Shown here piece by piece: positions 33,525 through 46,181 of a stretch of DNA of 64,000 nt (position 1 is its first letter; every line of letters begins with the position of its first letter). The DNA comes from Sphingomonas sp. TZW2008 (GTDB lineage Bacteria; Pseudomonadota; Alphaproteobacteria; Sphingomonadales; Sphingomonadaceae): assembly GCF_002117915.1 (NCBI RefSeq), contig NZ_BDJB01000008.1, forward strand, positions 248,001 through 312,000, written 5' to 3'. The translations under genes were made by a program, and so were the position numbers. Below the pieces are notes generated by a model that saw only the letters and a program-made list of their open reading frames with translations, ran no database searches and was not told the origin of the DNA.

Positions 33525-33866
33525 TCAAGCCTTCGGCGTGCTCAGATGCGCGCTGAGGTGCTTGTTCATCTCGAACATGCTGACCGACTTTTTGCCGAAA
33601 ATCTTCGCCAACTTGTCGTCGCCGTTGATCTGCCGCCGATCCTTGGCGTCCTGCAGATCGTGCTTCTTGATATAGTCCCACACCTTTTTCACGACTTCGC
33701 TGCGCGGAAGATCGCCCTTGCCGACGATCTCGGCCAGATCGGCGGACGGCGTGACCGGCGCAGTGATCCCGCCACGTGCGCCGCCAGCGGACTTGCCGGT
33801 TGCCTTGACCTTCTTTTCCGCCGCCGCGGTCTCGTTCTTGCCGCGCTTCTCTGCCGAACGTGCCAT
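33525..33866 (-). CDS. SWIB/MDM2 domain protein
   Basis: A 113-residue basic protein. Residues 1-30 are a Lys/Ala-rich tail (KRGKNETAAAEKKVKATGKS) and the rest is a single SWIB/MDM2 domain: LAEIVGKGDLPRSEVVKKVW, DYIKKHDLQDAKDRRQINGD and KIFGKKSVSMFEMNKHLSAH. Stand-alone SWIB proteins occur in some bacteria; the basic tail suggests nucleic-acid binding, possibly nucleoid-associated (inference). Start ATG has GGAGAG. Monocistronic. Confidence 0.88.
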   Translation of the reverse strand: MARSAEKRGKNETAAAEKKVKATGKSAGGARGGITAPVTPSADLAEIVGKGDLPRSEVVKKVWDYIKKHDLQDAKDRRQINGDDKLAKIFGKKSVSMFEMNKHLSAHLSTPKA

Positions 33867-34069
33867 TTTTCTCTCCGGTCCTGCCCGCCCGATTCCGGGC
33901 GCAGCGAGTGGTGGGCGCGATTGTGTCGTACGAAAAGCGAAACATCGCAAGGCGCAACGCATTGGCCCGTCCGCCGACCGTGCGGCAGACGCCGCCGTTA
34001 CGGTCCCGTCGCTGTGCCTAGATGCCGCGTGGACGGTCGGCGACTTGCAGTTCGCGCGCCCGGCGCTAG

Positions 34070-34295
34070 GACGGTCCGGCGCCGTTCGACGGCGCATCAA
34101 GGCGTGCCGGTACCGGGAACGCAGTGCGCATGTTTCGGCATGTAATTCTGCGGCTGACCCTGCAACTGTGAGCGGCGAGTGCGATGTGCAGGCGGGGTGG
34201 CTTCATCCCGCAGTCACTGGAACGATCGGTTGCATCAAGCCGATCGTCTGGGAAGGCGCAGGTCGCGCGATGATCCGCAAGCCAGGAGACCGCTC
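34070..34295 (+). promoter_or_regulatory. Cobalamin (B12) riboswitch
   Basis: The 613-base gap 33867-34479 holds this element. Conserved pieces in order: P1 strand GGTC (34073-34077 region), ACCGGGAACGCAGTG (34112-34126), the core GCTGACCCTGCAACTGTGAG (34153-34172), the B12-box-like AGTCACTGG (34212-34220), GGGAAGGCGCAG (34250-34261) and CCGCAAGCCAGGAGACC ending near 34292, whose GACC pairs with the P1 strand. Binding of adenosylcobalamin to such RNAs represses downstream genes. A leader of about 185 bases separates it from the ATG at 34480; how it closes that start is not evident. Confidence 0.92.
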
Positions 34296-34479
34296 GGCGC
34301 GTGTCGCTCTTGTCCGGCTCATGGGACTGGCCGGGCGCGAAGCTCTTCGTCTGAGCGACGGAAATGCGGCCGGGGCCGCACCGGTGATGGCTGTCGGCGC
34401 GAACGCGCGCGTTGCGGCGATCGTCCGGCCGTTCGCACGGACGCCCCGGCATGGTCGCTCGACGCGTGGAGCCTGCCTC

Positions 34480-35022
34480 ATGATCCTCTCCCGTACCCCC
34501 GATGCCGGCATCGCCTGGCAACTCGCGCTCGCCGCCGTCGCCGTGCTTGGCACGCTGGCAATTGCCTGCATGATGCCGTTCGTCGCGCTTGCGGTCGCCG
34601 CCGCGCTCACCATGCCCCGCACGCGCGCCGCCGCAACGATCACCGCGATCTGGGCGACAAACCAGCTGCTCGGCTTCGGGCTGCTCGGCTACCCCCTCAC
34701 CGGCTACGCGCTGTCGTGGGGCGGCGCGCTGCTCGGCGCCAGTCTGGGTGCGATGCTGCTCGCGGCGCGGCTGTTCGACGCGCCCCGCCCGCTCAGTTAC
34801 GCCTTCCCGCTGGTCTTCCTCGCCGCCTTCGCCGCATTCGAAATCGCGCTGTTCGGCTTCGCGCTGCTCGTCGGCGGGACCGAGACGTTCACGCCGACGA
34901 TCGTGCTGCAACTGTTGACCAACGACGTGCTGTGGTTCGCTGGATTGCTTGCGCTCCACGGTGTGCTTACCCGCGCCGCTCCGCGGGTGTTCGGCCCGGG
35001 CCTCGCGCTGCGGGCGGCGTGA
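34480..35022 (+). CDS. B12-regulated membrane protein, candidate cobalamin transporter
   Basis: A 180-residue, highly hydrophobic protein with five or six membrane helices (WQLALAAVAVLGTLAIACMM, LLGFGLLGYPLTGYALSWGG, FPLVFLAAFAAFEIALFGF, LLTNDVLWFAGLLALHGVL). It is the first gene after the riboswitch and overlaps by one base the gene for a B12-binding protein, so a role in cobalamin or cobinamide uptake is likely. Size and topology recall ECF-type S components, but I cannot place the family. ATG is preceded by GTGGAG. Confidence 0.75.
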   Translation: MILSRTPDAGIAWQLALAAVAVLGTLAIACMMPFVALAVAAALTMPRTRAAATITAIWATNQLLGFGLLGYPLTGYALSWGGALLGASLGAMLLAARLFDAPRPLSYAFPLVFLAAFAAFEIALFGFALLVGGTETFTPTIVLQLLTNDVLWFAGLLALHGVLTRAAPRVFGPGLALRAA

Positions 35023-35936
35023 TGGCCCAGCCGCGCGTCGTCTCCCTGCTGCCCAGCGCGACCGAGATCGCCGTCGCCGTCGGCATGGAGCAGGAGATCG
35101 TCGGGCGGTCGCACGAATGCGACTTCCCTGCATTCATCAAGGCACTGCCGATCTGCACCGCGACCAAGCTCGAAAAGGGGCTGACGTCGCTGCAGATCGA
35201 CGATCGCGTGCAGGAGATCGTGCGCCAGGGCCTGTCGGTCTACGAGGTCGACGCCGCGCTGCTGCGATCGCTGCGCCCCGACGTGATCCTGACGCAGTCG
35301 CAGTGCGCCGTGTGCGCGGTTACGCCGCGCGATCTCGAAGAGGCGCTGTCGTCGTGGATCGGCACGCCGCCGACGCTGCTGTCGCTGGCGCCCGACAATC
35401 TTGACGACGTCTGGGGTGATCTGCGCCGCGTCGGTGAGGCAGTCGGCGCGCCCGCAGCCGCCGAAGCATCGATCACCACCCTTCAGGCACGGCTCGACAC
35501 ACTCCGCACGCGAGCGGCCAAGCGCGCGCATCGTCCGACGATCGCCGCGATCGAGTGGATCGATCCGCTGATGGCGGCGGGAAACTGGGTGCCTGAACTG
35601 ATCCAGATCGCGGGCGGGGAGCCGCTGTTCGCGACGCCCGGCCAGCATTCGCCATGGCTCGAATGGGACGCGCTGGTCGCGGCCGATCCCGACATCATCG
35701 TGCTGATGCCGTGCGGTTTCCAGATCCCGCAGACGATGGCTGATCTTGGTCCGCTCACCACGCGCGACGGGTGGAATCGGCTGGCCGCGGTGCGCGCCGG
35801 CCGGGTGTTCGTCGCCGACGGCCACCATTTCTTCAATCGCCCCGGCCCGCGGCTCGTCGAATCCGCGGCGATCATCGCCGAGACGATCGATGCCGGCCGC
35901 GGCGTGGACGCCGGCGCGGGGTGGCGCCGGCTATGA
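35022..35936 (+). CDS. Cobalamin-binding protein, BtuF-like, without signal peptide
   Basis: A 304-residue protein of the helical-backbone periplasmic-binding fold (BtuF/FecB, COG0614). Segments: RVVSLLPSATEIAVAVGMEQ, IVGRSHECDFP, LRPDVILTQSQCAVCAV, PTIAAIEWIDPLMAAGNWVP and GPRLVESAAIIAETI. It lacks a signal peptide or lipobox; ATG 35022 overlaps the previous stop as TGATG. Riboswitch control plus this family makes B12 or cobinamide the likely ligand. It would be cytoplasmic unless exported another way, which is odd for a transporter-binding protein. Confidence 0.85.
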   Translation: MAQPRVVSLLPSATEIAVAVGMEQEIVGRSHECDFPAFIKALPICTATKLEKGLTSLQIDDRVQEIVRQGLSVYEVDAALLRSLRPDVILTQSQCAVCAVTPRDLEEALSSWIGTPPTLLSLAPDNLDDVWGDLRRVGEAVGAPAAAEASITTLQARLDTLRTRAAKRAHRPTIAAIEWIDPLMAAGNWVPELIQIAGGEPLFATPGQHSPWLEWDALVAADPDIIVLMPCGFQIPQTMADLGPLTTRDGWNRLAAVRAGRVFVADGHHFFNRPGPRLVESAAIIAETIDAGRGVDAGAGWRRL

Positions 35937-41999: not shown

Positions 42000-44153
42000 T
42001 TGACGACGATTTTCGCGCTGTTGGCTTCAGCAGCCGCTGTTACCACCGCACCGGCGGATGCCATTGAGCCGCAAAGCATAGACGACATCGTCGTTACCGG
42101 GCAGCGGACTGAAGGAACTGACGACTACACGATCCGCGGCGAGACGACCGCAACGCGCCTCAACCTGACGCAGCGCGAGACGCCGCAGTCGATCAGCGTC
42201 GTCACGCGCGCACAGATCGAGGACTTCCAGCTCAACGATGTCAACACGCTGCTGACGACGGTGCCGGGCGTCAACGTCCAGGCGAACGAGACCGATCGCG
42301 TCTATTTCTCCGCGCGCGGCTTCGACATTCAGACGTTCCAGATCGACGGCATCGGCGTGCCCTTCGCCTTTGGGATCCAGACCGGATCGATCGACACCGC
42401 CTTCTACGATCACATCGAGGTGCTGCGCGGCGCCCCCGGCCTGCTCTCGTCGACCGGCAACCCGTCGGCAGTGGTCAATTTCATCCGCAAGCGCCCGACG
42501 CGCGACACGCAGGTGCGCGCCTCGGCGCAGTACGGCTCGTTCGACAACGTCCGGCTCGAGGCCGACGTCAGCGTGCCCTTGACCAGCGACGGCAGCGTCC
42601 GCGCGCGCGCGGTCGGCGCCTTCACCGATACCGACAGCCATCTCGACCGCTACGGCCTGCGCCGCTGGGTCGGCTACGGCATCGTCGAGGCCGATATTGG
42701 GCCCAAAACCGTGATCAGCGCGGGCTATGGTCATCAGGATCACCAGAGCCGCGGGGCGATGTGGGGCGCACTGCCGCTCAACTACACTGATGGCACGCGG
42801 ATCGACTATGATCGCTCGGCCAACGTCGCGCCCGACTGGTCGAACTGGAACATCATCGATCGGCAGATCTTCGGCGACATCACGCACCGCTTCGACAATG
42901 GCTGGATCGCGCGGTTCAGCGCGGTCCGCCGCGCGACGAGCGAGGCCGACGAGCTGTTCTACGTCTACGATGCGCCCGTTCGCGGCGCACCGGGCGGCAT
43001 CGACCTGCGCGATCCGGCGAATCCGTTCGATGATCTTGGCATTAAAGCCTATCCCGGCGCCTTTCGCGCGCAGACGCGCAACCTGACGATGGAAGGCTAT
43101 ATCACCGGCCCGGTGACGCTGTTCGGCCGCCAGCATGACGTGAACATCGGCGTCAATCGCAGCGCACAGGATTACAAGCAATCGTCGAGCTACGACAATG
43201 CGCTGATCGGCCAGCTGCTGCCCTTCCCCGATCTGCTCGACGGCAATTTCCCGAAGCCGAACTTCCCGACCGAATTCTCTACCGCCTATGCATCGAGCCA
43301 GAACACGCAGACGCGACGCGAGACGGTCTATGGCCTCGTTCGGCTCAACCTCGCCGATCCGCTCAAGGTGATGCTCGGCGGCAACGTCACGCACGCCGTC
43401 AGCAAGGGCTTCTCCTACGGCGTCGACACCAATTTCGACAACACGCGCTTTCTGCCGTTCGCGGGCGCGACGTTCGACGTGACGCCGAACCTAAGCCTGT
43501 ACGCAAGCTACGCGACGATCTTCAATCCGCAAACCGCGATCGGCGCGGACTTCCGCATCCTTGATCCGATCCGCGGCAACAATCTCGAAGCCGGTATCAA
43601 GGGCGAATGGTTCGACGGAAGGCTCAACGCCACCGTCGCGCTGTTCCGCACGCGGCAGGACAATACTGCGGAGGCGATCGACTTCGTCGGCGGCCGCACG
43701 ATCTCGCGCGGCGTCGATGCGCGGTCGGAAGGCATCGAGATCGAGGTCGGCGGGCAGCTCGCGCCCGGGCTGCAGGCGACCGGCGGCTATACGCTGATGC
43801 GGATTGAGGATGAGAATGGCGACGCCGCGCGCCTGTTCGTGCCGCGCAACACCGGCCGACTGAATGTCAGCTACTCGCCCCCCGCCCTGCCACAGCTGAA
43901 GCTCGGCGCCTCGGGCCAGTATCAGAGCCGCATCTTCACACCGACGCGGACTGCGCGCCAGGGCAGCTACGCGCTGCTCGATCTGCTCGCCCGCTACGAA
44001 CTTACCCCAAATGTCGCCGCAGGTATCAACGTCCGCAACGTAACCAACGCCAAATATCTGACCGCGGTAAACTTCGACGGCGGCTATTTTGGCGCGCCGC
44101 GCACGGTGCTCGGCACGATCAGCGTGCGCTTCGGGCCCGGCATCGGCTTCTGA
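42000..44153 (+). CDS. TonB-dependent siderophore receptor
   Basis: A 717-residue outer-membrane receptor. N-terminal signal (TTIFALLASAAAVTTAPADA), a TonB-proximal plug (DDIVVTGQR; TPQSISVVTRAQIEDFQ; TTVPGVNVQANETDRVYFSA; YDHIEVLRGAPGLLSSTGNP) and a beta-barrel ending in the aromatic FGPGIGF. Plug wording matches FpvA/FecA-like siderophore receptors. The only in-frame start is TTG 42000 behind GGGGGAG, as an in-frame TAG lies at 41961; the signal lacks a basic N-terminus. Followed two bases later by a membrane protein and PepSY gene. Confidence 0.92.
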   Translation: MTTIFALLASAAAVTTAPADAIEPQSIDDIVVTGQRTEGTDDYTIRGETTATRLNLTQRETPQSISVVTRAQIEDFQLNDVNTLLTTVPGVNVQANETDRVYFSARGFDIQTFQIDGIGVPFAFGIQTGSIDTAFYDHIEVLRGAPGLLSSTGNPSAVVNFIRKRPTRDTQVRASAQYGSFDNVRLEADVSVPLTSDGSVRARAVGAFTDTDSHLDRYGLRRWVGYGIVEADIGPKTVISAGYGHQDHQSRGAMWGALPLNYTDGTRIDYDRSANVAPDWSNWNIIDRQIFGDITHRFDNGWIARFSAVRRATSEADELFYVYDAPVRGAPGGIDLRDPANPFDDLGIKAYPGAFRAQTRNLTMEGYITGPVTLFGRQHDVNIGVNRSAQDYKQSSSYDNALIGQLLPFPDLLDGNFPKPNFPTEFSTAYASSQNTQTRRETVYGLVRLNLADPLKVMLGGNVTHAVSKGFSYGVDTNFDNTRFLPFAGATFDVTPNLSLYASYATIFNPQTAIGADFRILDPIRGNNLEAGIKGEWFDGRLNATVALFRTRQDNTAEAIDFVGGRTISRGVDARSEGIEIEVGGQLAPGLQATGGYTLMRIEDENGDAARLFVPRNTGRLNVSYSPPALPQLKLGASGQYQSRIFTPTRTARQGSYALLDLLARYELTPNVAAGINVRNVTNAKYLTAVNFDGGYFGAPRTVLGTISVRFGPGIGF

Positions 44154-44154
44154 C

Positions 44155-44697
44155 GTGATCGCCGCCCCGCTCCTCGTCGTCGTCGCCGCGACGCTGCTGA
44201 TCCGCGCCGGATGGAGCGGCCGGCGCAGCCTCGGCGTGGTCGGCTGGGCGCTCGGCGGCGTCGCGCTCGGCTGGCTGGCGTGGGGGGACGGCGCGTGGGG
44301 CATCGCGCTCGGCACCGTCGCCGGGATCGCCGTCGCACTCGCGCTGGTCCTCTACGCCGGCGCCACCGCCCCCGCCCGCACGCGCCGCGCGCCGCGTGAG
44401 GCGCCCGCGATCGCGCTGCCCCGCAACGGTGGCGATTTCGGCCGCCGTGTCGCCGTCTTCCTCCTGGTCGTGCCGGTCGCATTCGTCGCCGCGCAATGGT
44501 GCGCCTATGGTGTCCAGGCGCTTGCCCGGCGCGCAGGCAGCGGGGAAGCGGACGCGATCGTCCTCACGCTTTTCCTGCAACCGATGATCTGGAGCGCGCT
44601 GATGATATGGCAGATGACCCGGCCTGGTCCGGTGCAGATGATCGCCCCCGCGGCGCTGACCGCGGTGTCCGGCACGCTGCTGTGGCTCGCCGCATGA
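44155..44697 (+). CDS. Uncharacterised membrane protein in siderophore operon
   Basis: A 180-residue protein with five or so membrane helices (APLLVVVAATLLIRAGW, VVGWALGGVALGWLAW, GIALGTVAGIAVALALVLY, VAVFLLVVPVAFVAAQW, ALTAVSGTLLWLA) and a basic cytoplasmic loop (ARTRRAPREAP). Encoded between the TonB receptor and the PepSY protein, two bases after the former and overlapping the latter by ATGA. The GTG start is supported by this spacing. It resembles small DUF3649/DUF3325-type partners of siderophore operons, but I do not claim a match. Confidence 0.7.
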   Translation: MIAAPLLVVVAATLLIRAGWSGRRSLGVVGWALGGVALGWLAWGDGAWGIALGTVAGIAVALALVLYAGATAPARTRRAPREAPAIALPRNGGDFGRRVAVFLLVVPVAFVAAQWCAYGVQALARRAGSGEADAIVLTLFLQPMIWSALMIWQMTRPGPVQMIAPAALTAVSGTLLWLAA

Positions 44698-46181
44698 GCG
44701 CGCCGCAGCGTCATACGCTGGTGCAACGCGCGCTGGGGGGGCATGCCGCGCTCGGCCTGCTCGCCAGTGCGCTGATCTACATCATCGCGCTGACCGGCTC
44801 GATCATCGTCATCCACGATCGCTGGCAGCGGTGGGAGGAGCCCAGTGTCGCGGAGAGCGCGGTGCTCTCCCCCGCTGCGGCGCAGGCCGCGATGACGGCG
44901 GTTGTCGCTGGTGAGGCTGGCAAGCCACCCACGACGCATCTCTACATCCGCATGCCGACGCCCGATCTGCCCCGCGCCGTCGTGACCACTGATCATGCCG
45001 CCTGGTACGTGGACGGCGCCGGCCGCATCGTCGCGCCCGAAGCGCATAGCTGGACCGAGTTCCTCATCGGGCTGCACGAATATCTGCACCTGCCGACGAC
45101 ATGGGGGATGATCCTCGTTGGCGCGCTCGGCGTCGCGCTCGCCGCGCTTGTCGTCACCGGCGTACTCGCGCACCCGCGCATCGTGCGCGACGCCTTTCTG
45201 CTGCGCACCCGCCACGATCCGCCGATCGCGCGCGCCGATTGGCACAACCGGTTGGGCGTATGGACGCTGCCCTTCGCGCTCGCCGTCACGCTGACGGGCG
45301 CGTTTATCGGGCTCGGCAGCGTCGGCGTCAGCGCACTCGCGCGCGGCTATACCGGCGGCGATCTCGAGAAGGTCTACGCGCCTGTGTTCGGTGACGAGCC
45401 GCCGCCTGAGGCCGCGCGCGGGCCGCTGCCGAACGTCGCGGCGGCGCTTCACGCGGTGCACACGCGCGTACCGCAGGCGTCGCCGACCTACGTCATCGTC
45501 CACGATCCCGGCACGCGCGGGCAGCACGTCCAGGTAATCGCCGAACATCCCCGGCGGCTGATCTACGGCGAGACGTATCGCTTCGACGGCGCCGGCCGCT
45601 GGCACGGGCCGGTCGGCCTGTCGGACGGCGCACTCGGGCAGCAGGCCGCCGCTTCAGCGTACAATCTCCATTTCGGCAATTACGCCGGCCTGCCGGTCGA
45701 GATCGCCTATATCCTGCTGGGCTTGGCGCTGTGCATCGTCACCGCGACTGGCACCACTCTGTGGCTCGGCAAGCGCCGCCGCCGCGGCCATGGCAGCGAC
45801 CGGCTCGAAGCGAGCTGGACAGTGATCGTCTGGGGCACGCCGCTGGGGCTGATCCTCACCTATTGGCTGCGCGCGACCGTCGGCCCGCAGGCGCAGCTCG
45901 TCGCGGGCTTTTGGTTGTTCCTCGCCGCGCTGCTGCTTGCCGCCGGTGCACGGTCCGCGCTCATCACCGCGCTGCGATTGCGGACGGTAACGGTGGGCGC
46001 GCTTGGTGTGACTGCATTCAGCCACGCCGCCGCGAGCTATCCCGGCCCGACCGAAAACCTCGCGCTCGACGCCGCGATCCTGGCGATGGCGGGGCTGATC
46101 TGGGCAGTGGGTCGCCGCTCGTCGGCTGCGGCGCCGGCGGCTGGTGCCGAGCGAGCGCGGATGGCTGCCGCGCAGCATTGA
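44694..46181 (+). CDS. PepSY-associated membrane protein, ferric reductase-like
   Basis: A 495-residue inner-membrane protein of the PepSY_TM group. First helix ALGLLASALIYIIALTGSII, PepSY-type periplasmic loop, paired helix motifs with His (FLIGLHEYLHLPTTWGMILV; RADWHNRLGVWTLPFALAVT; SAYNLHFGNYAGLPVEIAYI), and extra helices at the C-terminus (about residues 385-480). Family members coupled to TonB receptors are thought to reduce or release iron from siderophores. Ends ten bases before a convergent gene. Confidence 0.88.
   Translation: MSAPQRHTLVQRALGGHAALGLLASALIYIIALTGSIIVIHDRWQRWEEPSVAESAVLSPAAAQAAMTAVVAGEAGKPPTTHLYIRMPTPDLPRAVVTTDHAAWYVDGAGRIVAPEAHSWTEFLIGLHEYLHLPTTWGMILVGALGVALAALVVTGVLAHPRIVRDAFLLRTRHDPPIARADWHNRLGVWTLPFALAVTLTGAFIGLGSVGVSALARGYTGGDLEKVYAPVFGDEPPPEAARGPLPNVAAALHAVHTRVPQASPTYVIVHDPGTRGQHVQVIAEHPRRLIYGETYRFDGAGRWHGPVGLSDGALGQQAAASAYNLHFGNYAGLPVEIAYILLGLALCIVTATGTTLWLGKRRRRGHGSDRLEASWTVIVWGTPLGLILTYWLRATVGPQAQLVAGFWLFLAALLLAAGARSALITALRLRTVTVGALGVTAFSHAAASYPGPTENLALDAAILAMAGLIWAVGRRSSAAAPAAGAERARMAAAQH

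What the first reader, a model, noticed from the sequence alone, without database searches (positions are those of the whole stretch)
34070..35936. Cobalamin riboswitch controlling an orphan membrane protein and a signal-less B12-binding protein
The RNA has the conserved core (GCTGACCCTGCAACTGTGAG), a B12-box variant and the closing GCCAGGAGACC, so B12 control is well supported. The genes are unusual: a 180-residue polytopic protein I cannot place, fused by a one-base overlap to a BtuF-like protein lacking any export signal, with no btuB, btuC or btuD nearby. This could be a compact uptake, salvage or sensing module in which the binding protein works in the cytoplasm.
Basis: partly seen in the sequence, partly recalled or inferred. 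Interest (0 to 1): 0.6.

Follow-up and report, generated by a model that had tools for sequence, protein, structure and literature searches.

The report
B12-switched membrane protein and partner
A vitamin B12-sensing RNA in a Sphingomonas-type bacterium sits above two overlapping genes: a small membrane protein of an undescribed family that looks like a vitamin-transporter subunit, and a B12-binding-type protein that appears to stay inside the cell, together suggesting an unusual way of taking up vitamin B12.

Summary
Rfam finds a cobalamin riboswitch at 34066-34312 (74.6 bits). Downstream lie a 180-aa membrane protein (34480-35022) and, overlapping by one base, a 304-aa BtuF-fold protein without an evident export signal (35022-35936).

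The membrane protein can be placed. Its family has no Pfam or NCBIfam model. The AlphaFold model has six helices, and its best structural matches are ECF S-components (top Z 11.4). Members share a cysteine in the first predicted periplasmic loop. In an alphaproteobacterial sample, 12 of 16 other members sit behind a cobalamin riboswitch, 9 of them with a TonB/BtuB-type receptor between. Of 36 genomes with the family, 35 show no EcfT and 34 no corrin-ring enzyme CbiC, so corrinoid rather than cobalt import is likely.

A second signal-less binding-protein subfamily follows the membrane gene in other lineages; in others DUF6580 replaces the membrane protein.

Best reading: a solitary S-component-like corrinoid importer, working like BtuM but with its cysteine elsewhere, coupled to a cytoplasmic binder. 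Against a strict module: the home genome has BtuBCDF-type genes elsewhere, and most class-wide relatives of the second gene that I viewed stand alone. Transport and binding are untested.

The parts
34066..34312 (+). Cobalamin riboswitch aptamer (RF00174, full length)
   Evidence: 74.6 bits, E 1.5e-16; one of two in the genome
34313..34479 (+). Leader between aptamer and first gene; GGAG at 34468-34471. No terminator-like site on this strand and no unusual folding energy (z -0.15 for 34300-34500), so the expression platform is not identified
34480..35022 (+). Six-helix membrane protein (P0001, 180 aa) of an undescribed family with an S-component-like model; proposed corrinoid importer
34567..34569 (+). 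Codon of the conserved Cys30, in predicted periplasmic loop 1 (ACxxP)
35022..35936 (+). BtuF-fold, signal-less Peripla_BP_2 protein (P0002, 304 aa); proposed cytoplasmic corrinoid binder

Best explanation
When cobalamin is scarce the riboswitch allows expression of two overlapping, probably translationally coupled genes. The first encodes a solitary S-component-like inner-membrane protein that takes a corrinoid from the periplasm, where a BtuB-type receptor has delivered it, and lets it cross without an ECF motor. Its conserved Cys30 lies in a predicted periplasmic loop and may ligate the corrin cobalt, as Cys80 does in BtuM. The second protein, a BtuF fold kept in the cytoplasm, receives or traps the corrinoid and so makes facilitated diffusion productive, or hands it on to salvage enzymes. 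Shown by computation: the riboswitch, the gene overlap, the family and its genomic link to riboswitches and TonB/BtuB-type receptors, the predicted fold, the conserved cysteine, the lack of an evident signal peptide, and the lack of EcfT and CbiC matches in nearly all of 36 genomes. Inferred: substrate, direction, mechanism, cobalt ligation, and the acceptor role of the second protein.
For: Family linkage: of 16 non-own members in a class-wide sample of 385 genomes, 12, from 8 families, have an Rfam cobalamin riboswitch upstream on the same strand, with a TonB/BtuB-type receptor between in 9 (in L228 with a further 202-aa gene) and nothing between in 3; 4 do not. Random placement would give far less than one (rough estimate that ignores relatedness). 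Fold: AlphaFold pLDDT 86.1, pTM 0.82, six long helices; VIA-align 2: S-component 3p5n Z 11.4 (3.4 A over 150), thiamin S-component 3rlb Z 9.0, S-component 5edl Z 8.1, MreD 9dvb Z 9.0, next row 5.9. Topology N-in by the charges of the loops; loops 1 and 3 are the most conserved of the seven non-helical segments. Cys30: 20 of 20, 22 of 22 and 17 of 17 rows that cover the column in three searches, the home protein being in each. EcfT: no match in 35 of 36 genomes; CbiC: none in 34 of 36. Pairing: 8 of 9 same-genus genomes with a strong P0002 orthologue have it next to the membrane gene. A different signal-less PF01497-type subfamily follows the membrane gene in Parvibaculum, Zavarzinia, Methylobacterium and Ferrovibrio, overlapping it in 3 of 7 loci and 3 to 10 bases away in 4. 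In other Sphingomonadales a DUF6580 gene sits between a BtuB-like gene and the P0002 relative. P0002 model: BtuF 1n2z Z 23.8, 3.0 A over 241. No FecCD match in some genomes whose family member follows a TonB receptor: G055, G064, G080 and Enhydrobacter, L080.
Against: No binding or transport data. Foldseek alone gave no significant match (3p5n at rank 18, E 9.2), and the aligner's note warns that Z below about 13 can be common for helical bundles. The home genome has btuBCDF-type genes elsewhere, so the pair is not the only route. Of the 17 genus genomes with the membrane family only 8 have the P0002 partner. Class-wide, 6 genomes hold both genes, but in the 5 other than the home genome they lie on different contigs, and of 29 non-own P0002 relatives viewed only about five lie near a B12-type gene or riboswitch-like motif. 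Four class-wide members and several others such as the Acetobacteraceae copies (L053, L054, L058, crude motif search only) show no riboswitch. FecCD absence is not enriched with the family. The annotation name BtuN could refer to this family; I could not check.
Confidence: 0.6

Rival explanations
1. The membrane protein imports a B12 building block rather than a corrinoid: the lower-ligand base or its riboside (CblT is named an alpha-ribazole transporter in PMC8123684, passage), or cobalt.
For: In one large branch the gene is followed by DUF1636, CobT, CobC and CobS, and once it lies directly between a riboswitch and CobT (L230). Cobalamin riboswitches also control cobalt transporters (PMC3766115, passages).
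Against: 34 of 36 genomes show no CbiC, so cobalt for ring synthesis should not be needed. 9 of the 12 riboswitch-linked class-wide members follow a TonB/BtuB-type receptor. In the window's branch the partner is a BtuF fold, not CobT.
Confidence: 0.13
2. The second protein is a corrinoid chaperone or a salvage/remodelling factor acting with DUF71-type ATPases, and the membrane protein is a corrinoid-processing (for example ligand-removing) protein rather than a transporter.
For: DUF71 follows the pair in L025 and L026 and lies divergently beside it in L069 and L097. Most P0002 relatives viewed stand alone. DUF71 is proposed for B12 salvage (PMC3541065, passages). P0002 has H31, C33, C95, C98 and C231 invariant in 11 sequences.
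Against: The S-component-like model and the position directly after an outer-membrane receptor favour transport; some genomes with receptor-linked members show no FecCD.
Confidence: 0.15
3. The second protein is exported by an unusual route and serves the BtuCD encoded elsewhere as an extra binding protein; the membrane protein is accessory.
For: The genome has btuCD-type genes, and all 8 same-genus genomes with the pair have FecCD.
Against: No signal-like stretch in the 18 proteins examined, 7 of which have no in-frame upstream start before a stop. The genome already has a PF01497 protein beside btuCD.
Confidence: 0.07
4. A sensing pair: the membrane protein reports external B12 to the cytoplasmic binding protein.
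For: Small membrane protein overlapping a binding-fold gene, under B12 control; nothing found excludes it.
Against: I recognised no recurring regulatory or signalling gene beside it in the loci listed, most of whose other genes were not annotated.
Confidence: 0.05

Closest known systems
BtuM (Thiobacillus denitrificans), solitary S-component-like B12 transporter
   Same: Small six-helix S-component-like protein, genomes without an ECF module, genomic link to btuB, an invariant cysteine near the periplasmic side (BtuM side: PMC6072759, abstract and passages)
   Different: Cysteine in loop 1 here, in L3 in BtuM; no match of the family profile to any PDB chain; neighbours are a signal-less BtuF fold or cobT genes, where BtuM mostly lies with btuR
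ECF S-components (3p5n, 3rlb, 5edl; by recall RibU, ThiT, YkoE; CbrT for B12)
   Same: Predicted fold and N-in, six-helix topology
   Different: 35 of 36 genomes show no EcfT; CbrT alone did not support uptake without its ECF module (PMC5997447, passages)
BtuF, periplasmic B12-binding protein
   Same: PF01497 fold, Z 23.8 to 1n2z
   Different: No evident export signal; invariant SHECD and QCAVC motifs, the former but for its variable neighbours, in 11 relatives; not beside btuCD
DUF6580 (PF20221) membrane family
   Same: Occupies the place between a BtuB-like gene and a P0002 relative in three loci of other Sphingomonadales
   Different: No significant profile similarity to the P0001 family, tested with only three DUF6580 sequences
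DUF71/COG2102 (PF01902), B12-salvage branch
   Same: Found next to the pair in some relatives
   Different: Not beside the window's own pair

Membership tests
Cobalamin riboswitch (RF00174) | Covariance-model match above the curated gathering score | tested here: met
   74.6 bits against 31.5
ECF S-component fold | Six-helix S-component fold | tested here: met
   3p5n Z 11.4 over 150 residues, three of the top four rows S-components; with the aligner's caveat on helical bundles and no significant Foldseek hit
ECF transporter | EcfT (CbiQ, PF02361) in the genome | tested here: not met
   none in the home genome; 1 of 36 family-bearing genomes; control rings in 10 of 14
BtuM family | Invariant cysteine in loop 3 | tested here: not met
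   the only invariant cysteine is in loop 1
BtuM family | Sequence similarity to BtuM | tested here: inconclusive
   family profile matches no PDB chain up to E 10; no BtuM sequence was compared directly
BtuM family | Solitary B12 uptake and corrinoid binding | not testable with these tools
   needs growth and binding assays
BtuF substrate-binding protein | Peripla_BP_2 / BtuF fold | tested here: met
BtuF substrate-binding protein | Export signal | tested here: not met
   (crude hydropathy check): absent in P0002 and 17 relatives; present in 8 of 8 BtuF controls
BtuF substrate-binding protein | Cobalamin binding | not testable with these tools
   binding assay needed
BtuN (annotation name) | Identity of the family so named | not tested
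   name seen in passages of two papers; no sequence available; the source paper I suspected is not held

The most novel reading that the evidence does not exclude
A motor-less, two-part vitamin uptake design: a solitary S-component-like pore with a cobalt-ligating cysteine passes corrinoid straight to a cytoplasmic BtuF-fold acceptor. The design has been put together more than once, with different membrane parts (P0001 family or DUF6580) and different signal-less binding-protein subfamilies, so a classic periplasmic protein has become an inside trap.
Probability: 0.35. Interest if true: 0.78.

Novelty: new variant of a known kind. Interest (0 to 1): 0.6.

Why it matters
[quoted passage not shown] This gives a testable candidate family, absent from Pfam and NCBIfam, in organisms that mostly show no corrin-ring synthesis gene. 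It also raises a clear mechanistic question: can a substrate-binding protein without a signal peptide act as an inside acceptor that makes facilitated diffusion of a vitamin productive?

Tried and rejected
Tried without result: Pfam, NCBIfam and PDB sequence searches for the membrane protein (the scattered weak hits differ from member to member and were dismissed); Foldseek alone (nothing at E 0.001 or better); BtuM not among the structural rows, which excludes nothing because only 81 chains were aligned; expression platform of the riboswitch; literature for DUF6580 (0 papers), for the family by context terms and for BtuN (5 papers, 2 on bacterial genomes, read by passages).

Rejected: FecCD absence as support in the genus (p 0.36). 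Cobalt transport as leading reading. Homology of the P0001 family with DUF6580 by profile (probability 1.4%, with only three DUF6580 sequences). Cysteine conservation in the 72 genome-collection loci was not counted as evidence, because the search pattern contained the cysteine; some searches were used instead, though their queries also carried it throughout.

Rows dropped or faulty: alignment A3 holds a meaningless one-residue row by my mistake and was not used further; L217 was left out of the tree because my coordinates ran through a stop; 3 fragment rows do not cover the cysteine column; two of the 36 genomes carry only a broken or split copy (G224, G237). Riboswitch calls are from a crude two-motif pattern of mine, not Rfam; counts quoted as riboswitch linkage come from Rfam. 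L040-L042 were not searched with Rfam over the btuB distance. Gene calls in loci come from a simple codon-usage script of mine, and receptor, Cob and DUF71 labels mostly from BLAST against a few reference proteins; Pfam was run on only some. Samples overlap: class-wide and collection loci share genomes (for example L216 and L061), and two of the 10 FecCD-less collection genomes are G064 and G080 again. Completeness of the 39 collection genomes is not given.

Full report
What is there. The window lies in a 3.5-Mb genome of 23 contigs; one same-genus genome (G064) shares a contig length with Sphingomonas desiccabilis. Rfam places a full-length cobalamin riboswitch at 34066-34312. The first gene starts at 34480 behind GGAG; homologues start at about the same place. 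The second gene's ATG shares one base with the first gene's stop codon. The genes on either side run on the opposite strand: a SWIB-domain protein upstream, an amidohydrolase downstream. The unit is therefore riboswitch plus two genes.

The genome around it. The genome has two cobalamin riboswitches. The second, on another contig, precedes a TonB receptor; btuC- and btuD-type genes lie upstream of it on the same strand and a PF01497 gene is divergent. PF01497 matches only two proteins in the genome, that one and P0002. The genome has no CbiC and no EcfT match.

The membrane protein. It has no match in Pfam, NCBIfam or, by sequence, the PDB (one PDB row at E 0.67 dismissed), and no family matches consistently across 20 relatives. 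Relatives: 17 of 150 near genomes, 22 of 296 in the order, 17 of 385 in the class, each figure including the home genome; and 72 loci in named records from a pattern scan, whose names are alphaproteobacterial as far as I know, except three labelled only Proteobacteria or Pseudomonadota. The predicted structure has six long helices with good confidence. The structural aligner puts three ECF S-components and MreD on top, well clear of the next row; that MreD shares the S-component fold is recalled, not tested. Foldseek by itself was not significant. Positive charges prevail in loops 2 and 4 and the C-terminus (the N-terminus is mixed), so loops 1, 3 and 5 are predicted periplasmic, as in S-components; loops 1 and 3 are the most conserved segments outside the helices. 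Cys30 and Pro33 in loop 1 are invariant in every covering row of three searches that did not select for them by pattern.

Its genomic company. In the genus, 13 of the 17 copies tested over a sufficient distance have an Rfam cobalamin riboswitch upstream (the home copy included); L029, L031, L032 and L033 do not, and three more copies (L040-L042) were not tested that far. In the class-wide sample, 12 of 16 other members do: L216, L217 and L230 directly, and L219, L221, L222, L224, L226, L227, L228, L229, L231 through a TonB/BtuB-type receptor gene (in L228 with one more gene); L218, L220, L223 and L225 do not. Seven receptors of the home genome and relatives, three of these nine among them, were checked by Pfam and match TonB_dep_Rec and Plug; that they are BtuB in function rests on the riboswitch. 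In one branch the gene is part of a riboswitch-btuB-X-DUF1636-CobT-CobC-CobS operon.

The second protein. It is a BtuF fold that begins where mature BtuF begins. P0002 and 17 relatives lack the hydrophobic N-terminal stretch that 8 of 8 BtuF controls show. The nearest upstream alternative start of real length (30 residues) would add only an arginine-rich stretch. Of the positions reported to take part in B12 binding in E. coli BtuF (Y50, W66, F162, F168, W196; PMC5662663, passages), Y50 and W66 fall one column from H31 and Y74 of P0002, F162 and W196 two columns from W179 and W212, and F168 on L183 (my reading of an alignment at about 20% identity).

How tight is the pair? In the genus 8 of the 9 genomes with a strong P0002 orthologue (E below 1e-100) have it next to the membrane gene. 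The exception, G087, has P0002 without the membrane family, lying between genes that look like ruvX and aspartate carbamoyltransferase, with one unrelated small gene beside it (L148); the same two neighbours enclose a membrane-family copy without P0002 in L031-L033. This suggests, by eye, that both once stood there together and one or the other was lost. In the collection loci 15 of 72 have a signal-less PF01497-type gene directly downstream: 8 of the P0002 type and 7 of a second type (Pfam checked for L073 and L085); the same second type follows in 3 of 16 class-wide loci (L216, L217, L219). On a tree of the membrane family the P0002-paired members form one group (99/89) and the second type lies elsewhere, so either pairing arose more than once or the partner was exchanged. 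In other Sphingomonadales a P0002 relative follows a BtuB-like gene and a DUF6580 membrane gene (L152, L154, L155). Against a strict unit: class-wide, 40 of 385 genomes have a P0002 relative at E 1e-30 or better and 17 have the membrane family; 6 have both (p 0.005 with, 0.016 without the home genome), but in the 5 other genomes the two genes lie on different contigs. Most of the 29 non-own P0002 loci viewed (L187-L215, of 39 genomes) stand among other genes; exceptions are L191 (DUF71), L213 and L214 (CobC relatives), L215 (TonB receptor), and L197, which shows only a riboswitch-like motif.

Is BtuCD dispensable? FecCD, the BtuC family, has no match in 11 of 150 relatives. Three of these, G055, G064 and G080, carry two copies of the membrane family, one of them behind a BtuB-like gene in the cobT operon. 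Of 39 genomes behind collection loci (39 of the 72 loci were given to the search) 10 have no FecCD match, two of them G064 and G080 again; another is Enhydrobacter aerosaccus, where the gene follows a TonB receptor. So the family can occur where BtuC seems missing, but this is not a significant trend in the genus (3 of 17 against 6 of 74), and all 8 same-genus genomes with the pair have FecCD.

Mechanism. The most economical reading is corrinoid import by a solitary S-component-like protein, as in BtuM, with a cytoplasmic acceptor. Of the 36 positives show no CbiC, so cobalt import for ring synthesis is unlikely there; class-wide genomes were not tested for it. Import of lower-ligand bases remains possible for the CobT-linked branch. 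The idea that Cys30 ligates cobalt is by analogy with BtuM's Cys80 (PMC6072759, passages) and is not tested; its place in loop 1 instead of loop 3 argues against simple membership of the BtuM family.

Novelty. DUF6580 occurs in no paper of the held library, and context searches found no description of this family. Two papers mention a transporter annotated BtuN without sequence (passages); if that is this family, the transporter prediction is not new, though the S-component fold, the cysteine and the signal-less partner would still be additions. I rate it a new variant of a known kind.

Noticed in passing
L152, L154, L155 (other Sphingomonadales genomes): DUF6580 membrane gene between a BtuB-like gene and a signal-less BtuF-like gene: a second candidate for the same role.
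   Followed up: partly
L148 1480-2415 and L031 8761-9309: P0002 without the membrane gene, and the membrane gene without P0002, at the same place between ruvX-like and aspartate-carbamoyltransferase-like genes (names by eye): a likely ancestral pair with losses.
   Followed up: partly
L053 5902-6477, L054 5956-6537, L058: Acetobacteraceae copies of the membrane family lie behind a CoA-transferase-like and an enoyl-CoA-hydratase-like gene (by eye), without a riboswitch-like motif, in genomes without a FecCD match.
   Followed up: no
L060 / L218: A family member lies near a B12-independent methionine synthase (MetE-like, by eye) gene, without an Rfam riboswitch nearby.
   Followed up: no
L034 8386-8793 and many relatives: DUF1636 protein regularly placed between the membrane gene and CobT; function unknown.
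   Followed up: no
window 42000-46181: TonB receptor, small membrane protein and a further membrane protein in a row, perhaps an iron-siderophore uptake group unrelated to B12 (only the receptor was checked by Pfam).
   Followed up: no
window 33525-33866 (-): Small SWIB-domain protein next to the riboswitch on the opposite strand.
   Followed up: no
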